Shown here one piece after another: positions 2,727-6,742 of a DNA stretch of 8,805 nucleotides (position 1 is the first letter of the stretch; each line of letters begins with the position of its first letter). Both the position numbers and the translations under genes were made by a program. Source of the stretch: JACRDV01 sp024860865 [NCBI: Methanobacteriota archaeon] (GTDB lineage: Archaea; JACRDV01). The notes below the pieces were generated by a model. That model had not been told where the DNA came from. It was given only the letters and a program-made list of their open reading frames with translations, and searched no databases. Where the stretch lies: assembly GCA_024860865.1 (NCBI GenBank), contig JACRDV010000091.1, positions 1-8,805 on the forward strand, read 5' to 3'.

Positions 2727-2750
2727 TAAGCCTTTCTATGAACATTTCAA

Positions 2751-2756
2751 TGTACA
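2751..2756. promoter_or_regulatory. TRP-box-like site 1 (TGTACA)
   Basis: Exact palindrome TGTACA inside the longer match CAATGTACA, which recurs at 2841-2849. It lies about 35 bases upstream of the trpD TATA box and about 25 bases upstream of the minus-strand TATA-like element, so a bound protein could affect both divergent genes. TGTACA is the TRP-box consensus bound by TrpY in Methanothermobacter; applying it here is inference. Confidence 0.5.
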
Positions 2757-2786
2757 ATTCTGCCAATTTGCGCAGTCTACACCAGT

Positions 2787-2794
2787 TTTATATA
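2787..2794 (+). promoter_or_regulatory. TATA box of the trpDFEG operon
   Basis: TTTATATA is a near-ideal archaeal box A. Transcription should begin about 25 bases downstream, near 2815-2820, giving a leader of roughly 45 bases before the trpD ATG at 2862. A TGTACT box lies exactly over this predicted start site. Confidence 0.7.
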
Positions 2795-2813
2795 CCATTA
2801 GCAACTTGTAGAA

Positions 2814-2819
2814 TGTACT
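2814..2819. promoter_or_regulatory. TRP-box-like site 2 (TGTACT), over the predicted transcription start
   Basis: One mismatch from TGTACA, in the context AATGTACT that matches the AATGTACA of the other two boxes. Its position at the predicted start site would suit repression by blocking RNA polymerase. The call rests on similarity to the other two boxes and on position. Confidence 0.4.
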
Positions 2820-2843
2820 AATAAAGTTAATAATGTATATCAA

Positions 2844-2849
2844 TGTACA
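2844..2849. promoter_or_regulatory. TRP-box-like site 3 (TGTACA), in the trpD leader
   Basis: Exact TGTACA within CAATGTACA, the same nine bases as at 2749-2757. It lies between the predicted transcription start and the trpD Shine-Dalgarno site, with a weaker TGTATA ten bases upstream (2834-2839). Two exact copies of this palindrome in a 165-base gap are unlikely by chance. Confidence 0.5.
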
Positions 2850-2851
2850 CT

Positions 2852-2855
2852 GGTG
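2852..2855 (+). promoter_or_regulatory. Ribosome binding site of trpD (GGTG), embedded in the operator-like palindrome
   Basis: GGTG matches the archaeal anti-Shine-Dalgarno sequence and sits six bases before the ATG at 2862, supporting that start. It is part of the CTGGTGTA half of the inverted pair, so the same bases may serve both DNA binding and translation. Confidence 0.5.
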
Positions 2856-2861
2856 TAATAT

Positions 2862-3926
2862 ATGGACTTCCCAAAGGAGACTATTCCAAAACTCGTCAAC
2901 GGAGAAAATCTTTCCTTTGAAGAAGCCTACCAACTCATGCAAGCGATAATGAGTGGAGGAGCAACCGATGCTCAAATCGGGGCTACATTAGTAGCTCTGA
3001 GAATCAAAACAGAAACCCCAGAAGAAATCGCTGGCTTTGCAAAAGCAATGAGAGAAGCTTGCAATCAAATTCATCCTAAAGTCAATGGCACATTAGTTGA
3101 TACATGTGGAACTGGCGGAGACAAACACAAAACAATAAATGTAAGCACGGCAGCGGCACTTGTAATCTCGGCAACTGGGATTCCAGTCGCGAAGCACGGA
3201 AACCGAGCAGTGACTAGCAAATGTGGCAGTGCGGATATTCTCGAGACCCTTGGATTTAACATTAGCCTTGAACCAGCTGCTGTAGAAAAAATGATTGAAA
3301 GGAATAATTTTGGTTTTATGTTTGCTCCAAATTTTCACCCTGCAATGAAAAGAGTTGTTGGGCCTAGAAAAGAAATTGGGATCAGAACTGTTTTCAATAT
3401 CCTTGGACCTTTAACAAATCCTGCAAACGCTCCTGCCCAGCTCATGGGAGTTTTCGACGCTAGCTTAACTGAAAAAGTTAGTCAAGTCATGAGAATTCTT
3501 GGCACAAAAAGAGCGATGGTAGTTCATGGCCTCGATGGATTGGATGAAATTTCAACAATTGGAGAGACTATAGTAACCGAACTATACGATGGGAAAATCG
3601 ATACATATCAGATCAAGCCTGAAGATTTTGGAATTGAAAGAGTTAAACCTGAACAGATTGCTGCGCTGGAAACTCCAGACCTGAATGCCGCTCTTTTATT
3701 AAAAATATTCAATAATAAAATCAAAGGTCCGAAACTTGATATTGTTTTATTAAATGCTGCAGGTGCATTAGTTGTTGGCGGAGCAAGGGACTTAAAAGAA
3801 GGCATCGAGATCGCAAAAAATGCAATTGAAAGCGGCTCAGTTTATCAAAAATTGTTAGAAGTCATCCAAGCTTCAAAGGGAAATCTCGATAAAATTCGAA
3901 CATTGGAGAGGTTACCGTGTGGTTAA
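2862..3926 (+). CDS. trpD: Anthranilate phosphoribosyltransferase
   Basis: TrpD transfers phosphoribose from PRPP to anthranilate, giving phosphoribosylanthranilate, in the cytoplasm. The 354-residue product is a normal length. An N-terminal helical domain (about 1-70) precedes the alpha/beta catalytic domain. Clear family motifs are DTCGTGGD (80-87, PRPP binding), KHGNRAVTSKCGSAD (111-125, PRPP and anthranilate contacts), FAPNFHPAMKRVVGPRKEIG (154-173), NILGPLTNPA (179-188) and GLDGLDEIS (223-231) with the metal-binding Asp228-Glu229 pair. The ATG follows GGTG by six bases and the protein begins as expected for the family. It is the first gene of the operon and overlaps trpF by eight bases. 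TrpD at the front is a different order from the trpEGCFBAD operon of Methanothermobacter. No defect is visible. Confidence 0.97.
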   Translation: MDFPKETIPKLVNGENLSFEEAYQLMQAIMSGGATDAQIGATLVALRIKTETPEEIAGFAKAMREACNQIHPKVNGTLVDTCGTGGDKHKTINVSTAAALVISATGIPVAKHGNRAVTSKCGSADILETLGFNISLEPAAVEKMIERNNFGFMFAPNFHPAMKRVVGPRKEIGIRTVFNILGPLTNPANAPAQLMGVFDASLTEKVSQVMRILGTKRAMVVHGLDGLDEISTIGETIVTELYDGKIDTYQIKPEDFGIERVKPEQIAALETPDLNAALLLKIFNNKIKGPKLDIVLLNAAGALVVGGARDLKEGIEIAKNAIESGSVYQKLLEVIQASKGNLDKIRTLERLPCG

Positions 3927-4578
3927 AGTTAAGATTTGTGGAGTTACAACGAGCGCTGATGCAAAAAGTGCTATTGATGCTGGAGCAGATTACATCGGAA
4001 TGATAGTAGAAGTTCCAGTTCAATCTCCAAGAAAGATTTCTCTTCAAAAAGCAAAGTTAATTGCTTCTCAAATTAATTTTAACATCATTGCAGTAATAAT
4101 GCCAAAAACTCCAGATGATGCAATAAAAATTGCAAATGAACTCAATCCATTTGCACTTCAACTTCATGGGAAAGAAACTTTGAGAAATGTCAAGATATTG
4201 CGCAACTCTCTTCCTAATACTATGTTGATAAAAACACTACCAGTTTCAAACTCAGTTTCATCTTCTGATTTGATCAAAACTGCAGCGCGCTATATTGATT
4301 CAGGAGTTGATGCTATTCTATTGGACACATATGTTGGAAACAAACCCGGAGGTACTGGACAAACTCACAACTGGGAAATTTCAAGAGAGGTTAGACGAGC
4401 ACTTTCCATCCCTGTTATCCTGGCAGGTGGATTAACTCCTGAAAATGTGGCTAAGGCCGTTAAAATTGTAAAACCTTTCGCAGTAGATGTTGCTTCTGGA
4501 GTTGAAAGATTTCCTGGTCAGAAAGATCCCAATAAAATGAAGTATTTTGTTAAAGCAGCAAAAGGAGCAAAAAAATGA
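3919..4578 (+). CDS. trpF: Phosphoribosylanthranilate isomerase
   Basis: TrpF converts phosphoribosylanthranilate to 1-(o-carboxyphenylamino)-1-deoxyribulose 5-phosphate (CdRP) by an Amadori rearrangement. The 219-residue product is a single TIM barrel of typical length. It opens with VKVKICGVT, placing the catalytic Cys at residue 7; the catalytic Asp is residue 136 in LLDT. QLHG (81-84), GGTGQTHNW (144-152), LAGGLTPENV (168-177) and DVASGVE (190-196, phosphate binding) are all present. The start is GTG at 3919, preceded by GGAGAGGT (3905-3912) about six bases upstream; it lies inside the 3' end of trpD, so translation is probably coupled. Its last codons contain the trpE Shine-Dalgarno site. 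The gene is complete and I see nothing odd. Confidence 0.96.
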   Translation: MVKVKICGVTTSADAKSAIDAGADYIGMIVEVPVQSPRKISLQKAKLIASQINFNIIAVIMPKTPDDAIKIANELNPFALQLHGKETLRNVKILRNSLPNTMLIKTLPVSNSVSSSDLIKTAARYIDSGVDAILLDTYVGNKPGGTGQTHNWEISREVRRALSIPVILAGGLTPENVAKAVKIVKPFAVDVASGVERFPGQKDPNKMKYFVKAAKGAKK

Positions 4579-6176
4579 AGGATTTTAATTTTCAAATAGA
4601 AAAAGCAAAAGAAAAAATGGACAAGTCAGAGATTGCAATTGTGCCATTGCGGGTAGAATTACCTGTTAATGCTCAGCCTTTTCAAATCTATGCAGCTCTG
4701 AAGGAAATCACAAATTCAAAATTTTCATTTCTCTTGGAATCAATTGAAGGTGAAGAGAGAGTTGCTCGTTATTCTTTCATTGGAGCAGCCCCAGAGCTCT
4801 TAATTCAAGTTCAAAATGGAGACGTTATAATAAAAAATTTAGGAGGACTCCAAGGTAATCTTTTATTTGAAATTGCTCGCCGAAATTTAGTAAATTCTTG
4901 TTGCTGCATGAGTGGTAACGGGCCATATGCTGCTGGAAAACTTGAGGAAAACAAGGACCCGATTGATGCAATAAGTTCTATTTTCATAAATGAATTTGTA
5001 AAGTATATTCCACTTTATGAGCACCCGAGGCAACTGTTTTTTGGCGGAGCGTTAGGCTACTTCTCATATGACATAGTTGATTACTGGTTAAAATTATTGC
5101 ACAGCAAAAGCTTCGGAATGCCAGAAGCGGAATTCATTCTCTCTACTAGAAGTTTAGTTTATGATCATAAAGAAAAGAAAGTATATGCCTACATAAATGC
5201 CTTTGTCACAAATGAGGCTTCTTCTGGATTAGCGAATGATTGCCAAATATACTTAAGCCAATTTATTAAAGCAGTTAACTCTGCTGAAACTTCACAGAAA
5301 CAACATTCAATTGAATTACGAGACCTGCCTGTTTCAGATTATCAACTCGATATGACAAAACCAGAATTTGAAGAAGCTGTGCAAAAGGCAAAGGATTACA
5401 TTTTTGCTGGAGATATTTTTCAAGTGGTTTTAGCCAGACAAGCAAGAACTTCGCTCAACAGCATCACTCCTTTTGATATCTATATGATTTTGCGCCAAAT
5501 GAACCCAAGCCCGTACATGTATTTGCTCGAGTTTAAAGAACATTCAATCGTTGGAGCCAGCCCTGAAACACTAGTGACTGTGTGCAACAGAAAAGTTATA
5601 ACAAATCCAATTGCTGGAACACGACCGAGAGGTAAAACTCCTGAAGAAGACCGAAAGCTTGAAAAAGAGATGTTGAATGATGAAAAAGAAAAAGCTGAAC
5701 ACGTAATGCTCGTTGATTTGGCGAGAAATGACGTGGGAATTGTTTCAAAACCGGGCACAGTAAAAGTTACAGAGTATATGGTGCCTTCAAAGTATTCCCA
5801 TGTTCAGCATATTGTTTCGACTGTTGTTGGGGAACTTAAGTATGATAAAACGACATTCGATGCTATAAGAGCAATTTTCCCAGCCGGCACTGTAAGCGGA
5901 GCTCCTAAAATTAGAGCAATGGAAATTATCGATGAGCTCGAAAGCGGAAAACGTGGGCCATATGCTGGCGGTGTTGGTTATTTTGCTTTCGATTTAAATG
6001 CTGACTTTGCAATTACTATTAGGTCAGTTGTTATCAACAAAGATACTGCTTTTGTTCAAGCTGGAGCCGGGATAGTTGCTGATTCTAAACCTGAGCGAGA
6101 ATTTTTTGAAACCCAAAATAAAATGCTCGCAATCCTTAAAACAATCGAAGTTGCAAAAGCGAGAGTGAAAGATTGA
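4575..6176 (+). CDS. trpE: Anthranilate synthase component I
   Basis: TrpE makes anthranilate from chorismate using ammonia supplied by TrpG. At 533 residues it is slightly long. The N-terminal domain carries the tryptophan feedback motif LLES (53-56), and NPSPYMY (310-316) forms the other side of that pocket, so the enzyme is probably inhibited by tryptophan. Chorismate-binding motifs include GDIFQVVLARQ (279-289), NPIAGTRPRG (344-353), EHVMLVDLARND (375-386), AGTVSGAPKIRAMEIIDELE (437-456), YAGGVGYF (463-470) and AGAGIVADS (496-504). Residues about 92-126, including CCC at 109-111, do not match the pattern I know and look like an insertion before the usual DPIDA segment. The ATG overlaps the trpF stop (ATGA) and follows AGGAG (4563-4567) by seven bases. 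A para-aminobenzoate synthase (PabB) role is less likely given the operon and LLES. Confidence 0.96.
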   Translation: MKDFNFQIEKAKEKMDKSEIAIVPLRVELPVNAQPFQIYAALKEITNSKFSFLLESIEGEERVARYSFIGAAPELLIQVQNGDVIIKNLGGLQGNLLFEIARRNLVNSCCCMSGNGPYAAGKLEENKDPIDAISSIFINEFVKYIPLYEHPRQLFFGGALGYFSYDIVDYWLKLLHSKSFGMPEAEFILSTRSLVYDHKEKKVYAYINAFVTNEASSGLANDCQIYLSQFIKAVNSAETSQKQHSIELRDLPVSDYQLDMTKPEFEEAVQKAKDYIFAGDIFQVVLARQARTSLNSITPFDIYMILRQMNPSPYMYLLEFKEHSIVGASPETLVTVCNRKVITNPIAGTRPRGKTPEEDRKLEKEMLNDEKEKAEHVMLVDLARNDVGIVSKPGTVKVTEYMVPSKYSHVQHIVSTVVGELKYDKTTFDAIRAIFPAGTVSGAPKIRAMEIIDELESGKRGPYAGGVGYFAFDLNADFAITIRSVVINKDTAFVQAGAGIVADSKPEREFFETQNKMLAILKTIEVAKARVKD

Positions 6177-6742
6177 GAATCCTTTTTTTAAATAACCGCG
6201 ATTCTTTTGTTTTTAATATAGTTGACTACATCTCAGTGATGGAATCCAATACAATTGTAGTTGATAATACAATCTCACTTGAAGAAGTTCATAAAATAAA
6301 TCCTACACACATAGTTATTAGCCCCGGACCCGGACACCCTAAAAAGGATACTGGAACGTGCATTCCAATTATCAAAGAGTTTGGTCCAGAGATCCCTATC
6401 CTTGGAGTTTGTCTTGGGCACCAAGCAATTGTTGAAGCTTTTGGCGGCAAAGTTATTCGAGGTTACTACCCGATCCACGGAAAGGCCTCAGCAGTACACC
6501 ACGATGGAAAAGGCATTTTCAGAAATATACCAAACCCATTTTTAATGGGGCGGTATCATTCGCTAGTGGCTGATCCTACGTTGCCTAATTGTCTAGAAAT
6601 TTCCGCTAAATTCGATGATGGAGTAATTGCAGGAATTCGGCATAAAAAATATCCAATTGAAGGGGCTCAAGGGCACCCAGAAAGTTATTTAACTGATCCA
6701 ACCATTGGTAAACAAATCCTCAGGAACTTTCTATTGCTTTAA
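6173..6742 (+). CDS. trpG: Anthranilate synthase component II (glutamine amidotransferase)
   Basis: TrpG hydrolyses glutamine and channels ammonia to TrpE. The 189-residue product is a complete class I glutamine amidotransferase. Visible motifs are NNRDSFVFNIVDY (7-19), ISPGPGHP (49-56, oxyanion region) and LGVCLGHQAI (77-86) with nucleophile Cys80. HGKASAVHHDGKGIF (102-116) is also present, and HPES (168-171) supplies the catalytic His168 and Glu170. The usual GVQFHPES is GAQGHPES here, a mild substitution next to the catalytic pair. The start is a TTG at 6173 overlapping the trpE stop (TTGA); the family N-terminus (ILFLNNRDSF) begins directly after it, so no longer form is needed. GTGA at 6165-6168 may be its ribosome site. 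The gene closes the operon. PabA activity toward folate synthesis is possible, as some TrpG proteins are shared. Confidence 0.95.
   Translation: MRILFLNNRDSFVFNIVDYISVMESNTIVVDNTISLEEVHKINPTHIVISPGPGHPKKDTGTCIPIIKEFGPEIPILGVCLGHQAIVEAFGGKVIRGYYPIHGKASAVHHDGKGIFRNIPNPFLMGRYHSLVADPTLPNCLEISAKFDDGVIAGIRHKKYPIEGAQGHPESYLTDPTIGKQILRNFLLL

What the first reader, a model, noticed from the sequence alone, without database searches (positions are those of the whole stretch)
2751..2849. Array of TRP-box-like sites at a divergent trp / surface-protein promoter
Seen: TGTACA at 2751 and 2844 (both in CAATGTACA), TGTACT at 2814 over the predicted start site, and weaker TGTATA at 2834. Known: TrpY of Methanothermobacter binds TGTACA boxes upstream of its trp operon. 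Inferred: a TrpY-like repressor controls this differently ordered operon, and possibly the divergent surface-protein gene too. The trpY gene is not adjacent, unlike in Methanothermobacter.
Basis: partly seen in the sequence, partly recalled or inferred. Interest (0 to 1): 0.6.

Follow-up and report, generated by a model that had tools for sequence, protein, structure and literature searches.

The report
Tryptophan repressor ladder, archaeal trp promoter
An uncultured archaeon carries, just ahead of its tryptophan-making genes, a row of short DNA boxes spaced exactly one helix turn apart that is shared with distant archaea carrying the same kind of regulator protein, so a tryptophan switch known from one methanogen is probably much more widespread.

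Summary
The boxes are real, but single AATGTACA sites are about as common in this genome as a reversed control (34 vs 27). The assembly holds one TrpY-family regulator (C56; TrpY_fam 212 bits, cut-off 180), unlinked to trpDFEG. A 10-bp ladder of TGTAYA boxes stands at the trp promoters of 9 of 10 relatives that carry a TrpY-like protein and whose trp locus was in hand (one Hadesarchaeon, eight Altiarchaeota; the tenth scores just below), but not at one TrpY-less archaeal promoter or 55 Pelagibacterales trpE upstream regions. Box word and period are the optimum against controls. Best reading: a TrpY-type repressor lines up on one DNA face across the start region of trpDFEG and shuts it when tryptophan is plentiful (binding and tryptophan response inferred). 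Control of the divergent gene by the off-grid 2751 box is not supported; the trpB-trpA contig has no ladder. New member of a known kind.

The parts
2834..2839 (.). TRP-box-like half-site TGTATA, ladder position 3
   Evidence: 10 bp before 2844
2844..2849 (.). TRP-box-like half-site TGTACA, ladder position 4
2814..2819 (.). half-site TGTACT, ladder position 1, near the transcription start expected from the upstream TATA box
   Evidence: start site predicted from TATA spacing, not measured
2824..2829 (.). ladder position 2, degenerate (AAGTTA, 2 of 6)
2751..2756 (.). TGTACA, off the 10-bp grid (63 bp before 2814); role unsupported
   Evidence: spacing read
2787..2794 (+). TATA-box-like TTTATATA of the trpD promoter (by eye, prediction)
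   Evidence: read from sequence
2846..2857 (.). TACACTGGTGTA palindrome inside the 2844/2854 box pair; only exact TACACNNGTGTA in the assembly
2778..2786 (+). TACACCAGT, inverted copy of 2849-2857, abutting the TATA box; repeats of this length arise in 691 of 5000 shuffles
2862..3926 (+). trpD, anthranilate phosphoribosyltransferase (TIGR01245, 435 bits)
3919..4578 (+). trpF
   Evidence: PF00697
4575..6176 (+). trpE
   Evidence: PF00425, PF04715
6173..6742 (+). trpG
   Evidence: PF00117

Best explanation
The stretch 2814-2859 is the operator of the trpDFEG operon. A TrpY-family repressor (ACT domain plus a presumed helix-turn-helix, gene at G000:C56:8431-8934) binds TGTAYA half-sites that repeat every 10 bp, so that adjacent subunits lie on the same face of the DNA. 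When tryptophan is bound to the ACT domain the protein fills the ladder across the transcription start and the first transcribed bases and blocks initiation; when tryptophan is short it lets go and trpDFEG is transcribed. Shown here: the ladder, its recurrence at trp promoters of other archaea with a TrpY-like protein, and the TrpY gene. Inferred: binding, tryptophan as co-repressor, and repression rather than activation (from M. thermautotrophicus TrpY as summarised in PMC6737238, passages seen).
For: One TrpY-family protein in the assembly, 212 bits against a cut-off of 180. The 10-bp three-box score of the 250 bp ahead of the operon is 16 of 18 in the window, reached by 0 of 300 shuffles. 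Ten relatives with a full-length TrpY-like protein and a trp locus in hand score 14-17 (9 of 10 at 15 or more). Among periods 7-13 period 10 is best in the window and in all ten, by one point in L032, L037 and L198 and by two or more in the rest. Four of the ten (L192, L196, L198, L199) were first read after the 10-bp spacing had been noted (note). Within whole loci of 10 to 20 kb the nine ladders are the only hits at 15 or more; the one other archaeal hit in the 25 loci scanned is at a contig end, L194. Controls: TrpY-less L036 scores 13 (53 of 300 shuffles reach it); 55 of 67 Pelagibacterales trpE upstream regions, those that passed the position and strand filter and still more AT-rich (mean GC 0.22), reach at most 13; over the eleven promoters TGTAYA ranks first of 180 letter orders, and over the ten relatives period 10 is highest of periods 5-20. 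TrpY-like genes lie just upstream of trpE in L033, L034, L198, L199 and 2.7-3.4 kb upstream in L045, L192, L196.
Against: No other genome of the same phylum is held, so no close-relative footprint. The Altiarchaeal proteins score 146-177 bits, under the NCBIfam cut-off of 180. L037 has a TrpY-like protein but scores only 14 (3 of 300 shuffles), ties other periods with four boxes and ties period 19 with three; L045, L192 and L196 tie at period 20, the double of 10. For the window alone TGTAYA is tied with two other letter orders. The ladder here lies mainly downstream of the best TATA box, whereas in most of the Altiarchaeota it covers the TATA box. No ladder on the trpB-trpA contig nor ahead of trpY itself, which has one TATACATT. 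Box pairs show no genome-wide excess. A TrpY homologue in Thermococcus kodakarensis does not specifically bind its trp promoter (PMC6737238, passages seen), so homology alone does not prove the target. The half-site was partly fitted to the first promoters seen, and the ten relatives are not independent (L045 and L192 nearly identical at the promoter; L032 and L198 similar).
Confidence: 0.75

Rival explanations
1. The boxes are chance words of an AT-rich promoter and no regulator binds them.
For: Single AATGTACA and box pairs with one mismatch are near control frequency in the genome; inverted repeats and short palindromes of the kind seen here arise in 14-18% of shuffles.
Against: The 10-bp ladder score is reached by 0 of 300 shuffles, is not found in a 154-kb sample of the genome, and recurs at trp promoters of archaea with a TrpY-like protein.
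Confidence: 0.08
2. The ladder is a trp operator, but another regulator (for instance an Lrp/AsnC-type protein) reads it, and TrpY does something else, as in Thermococcus.
For: TkTrpY does not specifically bind its trp promoter (PMC6737238, passages seen); regulators of this genome were not surveyed beyond ACT-domain and TrpY-family proteins.
Confidence: 0.12
3. The palindrome TACACTGGTGTA is an operator of its own, shared with three tandem copies of the half motif at 16-bp spacing ahead of an archaeal ATPase gene on C151, and the TGTACA overlap is incidental.
For: Exact TACACNNGTGTA occurs once in the assembly, here; C151:654-695 has three TACAYTRGTG copies.
Against: The palindrome is the inner part of the box pair TGTACA-CTGG-TGTAAT; relatives conserve the boxes, not the CTGG centre; with one mismatch allowed it is rarer than its reversed control (26 vs 76 strand matches).
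Confidence: 0.04
4. Control is by translation of a short leader frame with two Trp codons (2833-2946) that overlaps the trpD start, an attenuator-like device.
For: ATG at 2833 opens a 38-codon frame with TGG codons at 2851 and 2863.
Against: No terminator-like site in 2600-2950, no Rfam match in the window, leader folds no better than shuffles (z 0.38).
Confidence: 0.02

Closest known systems
TrpY / TRP box regulation of trpEGCFBAD in Methanothermobacter thermautotrophicus (as summarised in PMC6737238, passages seen; original paper not held)
   Different: trpY not adjacent; operon order trpDFEG with trpB and trpA on another contig; ladder mostly downstream of the best TATA box; no ladder at trpY itself; tryptophan response untested. 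Whether the M. thermautotrophicus boxes are 10 bp apart was not seen in any call
TrpY-associated trp promoters of Altiarchaeota and a Hadesarchaeon (L031-L034, L045, L192, L196, L198, L199), found here
   Same: TGTAYA-like half-sites every 10 bp at the trp promoter, TrpY-like protein in the same genome (own protein 49% identical to the Hadesarchaeal one, 42 and 37% to two Altiarchaeal ones)
   Different: In most of the Altiarchaeota the ladder covers the TATA box (by eye); here it runs from the expected start site to the trpD start codon
Tar (TK0271) of Thermococcus kodakarensis, TGGACA-N8-TGTCCA upstream of BRE/TATA (PMC6737238, passages seen)
   Same: Regulates trp genes in an archaeon
   Different: No such palindrome at this promoter; the one 3-mismatch match in the window lies inside trpE (1 found, 2.85 expected). 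A Tar protein was not looked for

Membership tests
TrpY / TRP-box trp repression | TrpY-family regulator encoded in the genome | tested here: met
   NF053754 212 bits, cut-off 180; ACT domain PF01842 30.6 bits, cut-off 27. No Pfam HTH model matches; the HTH part is inferred from the family and from a modest model of the L034 relative
[quoted passage not shown]
   as an array; single boxes are not clearly enriched in the genome
TrpY / TRP-box trp repression | Box array shared by trp promoters of TrpY-carrying relatives and absent without TrpY | tested here: met
   9 of 10 TrpY-positive at 15 or more, the tenth 14; one TrpY-negative archaeal promoter 13; 55 Pelagibacterales regions at most 13. 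Only one TrpY-negative archaeal promoter was defined, so the 'absent' half is thin
TrpY / TRP-box trp repression | Boxes overlap TATA box or start site | tested here: inconclusive
   Overlap with an expected start (2814) and a weak possible TATA (2834), no measured start site
TrpY / TRP-box trp repression | trpY next to the trp operon with overlapping promoters | tested here: not met
   trpY on C56, operon on C40, trpBA on C157. This is the arrangement in M. thermautotrophicus; I do not count it as needed for the mechanism
TrpY / TRP-box trp repression | trpY represses its own promoter | tested here: inconclusive
   No ladder at 15 or more; one TATACATT at L141 1157-1164, about 25 bp ahead of the start codon
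TrpY / TRP-box trp repression | Tryptophan-dependent DNA binding and repression | not testable with these tools
   needs purified protein
Tar-type aromatic regulation | TGGACA-N8-TGTCCA ahead of BRE/TATA | tested here: not met

The most novel reading that the evidence does not exclude
TrpY control through a one-turn-per-box TGTAYA ladder is an old, lineage-crossing archaeal trp switch (this unplaced lineage, a Hadesarchaeon, Altiarchaeota, a methanogen), in which TrpY assembles as a filament on one DNA face; the number of boxes and their place relative to the TATA box (covering it, or downstream of it as a roadblock) set how the operon is shut, and in the Hadesarchaeon the sensor is joined to chorismate mutase, linking the pathway's branch point to its gene control.
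Probability: 0.35. Interest if true: 0.6.

Novelty: new member of a known kind. Interest (0 to 1): 0.45.

Why it matters
PMC6737238 (passages seen) calls TrpY of one methanogen the exception to how little is known of trp regulation in archaea, and shows that its Thermococcus homologue does not do that job. An exactly phased box ladder at trp promoters of archaea with a TrpY-like protein (Altiarchaeota, a Hadesarchaeon and this lineage) gives a simple sequence rule for guessing which archaea use TrpY for trp, and makes the question testable with short DNA probes of changed spacing.

Tried and rejected
Single-box enrichment and box pairs: no clear genome-wide excess, so no regulon could be read off. 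The palindrome TACACTGGTGTA as a separate operator: absorbed into the box ladder. trpB-trpA contig (L131): no TGTACA, no ladder; a trpC gene was not searched for in the genome. C8:1330, the only other exact box pair, lies between the ends of two converging ORFs (L152 2-1303 and 1605-2576), not at a gene start. Terminator, Rfam and leader fold: nothing. Structure of the L034 TrpY: mean pLDDT 68, pTM 0.52, with an N-terminal helical/wing part and a beta-alpha-beta-beta-alpha-beta C-terminal part that would fit HTH + ACT (its first strand in a stretch under pLDDT 50), but no PDB match at E 0.001 or better; no PDB sequence relative of the own protein at E 0.01. Whether the own TrpY falls in the M. 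thermautotrophicus branch could not be tested: no such sequence was at hand. Nine of the 18 TrpY-positive Altiarchaeota had no trp locus in hand and were not tested; L035, L038 and L041 (no full-length TrpY) were scanned whole (no hit at 15 or more) but their operon promoters were not defined. The 71 loci used as bulk background were 70 bacterial ones plus Lokiarchaeal L041: 989,029 bases, 8 hits at 15 or more and 3 at 16 or more, both strands.

Full report
Setting. The window is a whole contig (C40) of a 1.54-Mb archaeal genome in 160 contigs, 92% complete. It holds trpD, trpF, trpE and trpG in one direction and a divergent ORF of at least 898 aa without family match. Searches at family, class and phylum rank each covered this genome alone. 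The best trpD relatives kept by a capped search are 55-56% identical, from a Hadesarchaeon and Altiarchaeota.

The observation. Taken singly they mean little: AATGTACA occurs 34 times in the genome against 27 for the reversed word, and of 30 of those 34 sites examined 24 lie inside mechanically picked ORFs. Taken as an array they are unusual: 52 of 5000 shuffles of the 165-nt intergenic region have two or more TGTACA, 10 of 5000 three or more TGTAC, 97 of 5000 some G/C-containing 7-mer three times. A further site, TGTAAT at 2854, was missed. 2834, 2844 and 2854 are exactly 10 bp apart, and 2814 is on the same grid; the box at 2751 is not (and the coordinates).

The regulator. A scan for ACT domains gave eight matches, one of them in a 167-aa protein at C56 that matches NCBIfam TrpY_fam with 212 bits against a cut-off of 180; it is the only member in the assembly. 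It is on another contig than trpDFEG and than trpB and trpA (C157). The genomes of ten archaeal trp loci were then scanned: six have a full-length match (the Hadesarchaeon 212 bits, above the cut-off; five Altiarchaeota 157-171 bits, below it), two have only a partial match over the ACT part and two Lokiarchaeota none. In the Altiarchaeal phylum 18 of 29 genomes have a match, all below the cut-off (146-177 bits). The own protein is 49% identical to the Hadesarchaeal one and 42 and 37% to two Altiarchaeal ones.

The ladder. In the first relatives read, TGTACA/TGTATA words stood 10 bp apart at the trp promoter (note). I then scored each 250-bp region ahead of the first trp gene by the best sum of three TGTAYA matches at a fixed period, on both strands. 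At period 10: window 16 of 18 (0 of 300 shuffles as good), L031 16 (0), L032 16 (0), L033 17 (0), L034 17 (0), L045 15 (1), L192 15 (1), L196 16 (0), L198 16 (0), L199 17 (0), and L037 14 (3). The one TrpY-less archaeal promoter, L036, scores 13 (53 of 300). Among periods 7-13 period 10 is best in all eleven, by one point in L032, L037 and L198; over periods 5-20 L045, L192 and L196 tie at 20 and L037 at 19. L192, L196, L198 and L199 were read after the spacing had been noted, though L045/L192 and L032/L198 resemble each other closely. In 55 of 67 Pelagibacterales trpE upstream regions (those that passed a position and strand filter; mean GC 0.22) the maximum is 13. Over whole loci, hits at 15 or more lie at the trp promoter in nine of the ten TrpY-positive relatives and nowhere else in those loci; among the 25 archaeal loci scanned one further hit lies at a contig end in L194. 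In 989 kb of other loci (70 bacterial, one Lokiarchaeal) there are 8 hits at 15 or more, both strands. TGTAYA has the highest total of 180 orders of its letters (175; the next two are shifts of it), and period 10 the highest total of periods 5-20 in the ten relatives (159; next is 20 with 145). For the window alone TGTAYA ranks first, tied with two other orders. In the own genome a sample of 153,951 bases has no period-10 hit at 15 or more; simulation with genome composition gives 0.12 hits at 16 or more per Mb and strand, with the local AT-rich composition 9.4.

How it probably works. Here a repeat of one box per helix turn suggests side-by-side binding on one face (inference). In most of the Altiarchaeal promoters the ladder includes the TATA box (by eye), which would block TBP. 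In the window the best TATA box (2787-2794) lies upstream and the ladder spans the expected start to the start codon, so block of initiation or early elongation is likelier; alternatively TGTATATC at 2834 acts as a weak TATA for a leaderless message starting at 2862. No start site has been measured.

Links to aromatic metabolism. TrpY-like genes lie directly upstream of trpE in L033, L034, L198 and L199 and 2.7-3.4 kb upstream in L045, L192 and L196. In the Hadesarchaeon one open frame reads chorismate mutase (CM_archaeal 68.8 bits, cut-off 66.95) followed by TrpY (209.7 bits), after a GHMP kinase gene that I read as shikimate kinase; however, the first ATG, GTG or TTG of that frame (1279) lies inside the chorismate mutase part, so whether one polypeptide is made is open.

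Against. No close relatives; Altiarchaeal proteins under the family cut-off; one TrpY-positive promoter weak; only one TrpY-negative archaeal promoter defined; no ladder at trpB-trpA or at trpY; a Thermococcus TrpY that does not specifically bind its trp promoter. The claim about the divergent gene has no support: the 2751 box is off the grid and its neighbourhood was not compared elsewhere.

Literature. Four searches (listings seen: 18 of 20, 3 of 3, 20 of 138 and 3 of 3 papers) showed one paper on TrpY in archaeal trp control (PMC6737238). Another listed paper, PMC3729527, does not use the word in its main text. I saw no report of TRP boxes in Altiarchaeota or Hadesarchaea in those listings; the library lacks most subscription papers, so this is not proof of absence.

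Verdict. Observation confirmed and extended; TrpY reading supported, divergent control not. A new member of a known kind, with a testable spacing rule.

Noticed in passing
L131 (G000:C157) 5656-6476, insert 5809-5837: trpA is interrupted by exactly 29 nt inside its most conserved motif (LELGI | PFSDPIADGP); five relatives read lack it. At one of three coding-equivalent cut positions the RNA fits a bulge-helix-bulge splicing layout (523 of 200,000 random 29-nt segments do per position), and the region folds better than shuffles (z -3.0), though the lowest-energy fold pairs the outer part differently. Either a tiny archaeal mRNA intron, a broken gene or an assembly error.
   Followed up: partly
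L131 4365-5640: Between trpB and trpA no trpC-like frame was recognised; instead a fragment resembling an archaeal ATPase on the minus strand (by eye), an AbrB-like reading frame (by eye) and a PIN-domain gene (Pfam).
   Followed up: partly
L125 and L132 (G000:C151) 652-700: Three tandem copies of TACAYTRGTG at 16-bp spacing over the TATA box and start region of an ATPase_2 gene; resembles the window's 2846-2857 palindrome.
   Followed up: partly
L144 (G001:C1) 1027-2001: Hadesarchaeal open frame joining archaeal chorismate mutase to a TrpY-family regulator, next to a GHMP kinase and a glucose-6-phosphate isomerase gene; no ATG/GTG/TTG ahead of the chorismate mutase part.
   Followed up: partly
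window 2833-2946: Short frame with two Trp codons overlapping the trpD start in another frame; no terminator or structure supports attenuation.
   Followed up: partly
window 2739-2756: TGAACATT-TC-AATGTACA, a 7-of-8 inverted repeat around the off-grid 2751 box (by eye), between the trp promoter and the divergent gene.
   Followed up: no
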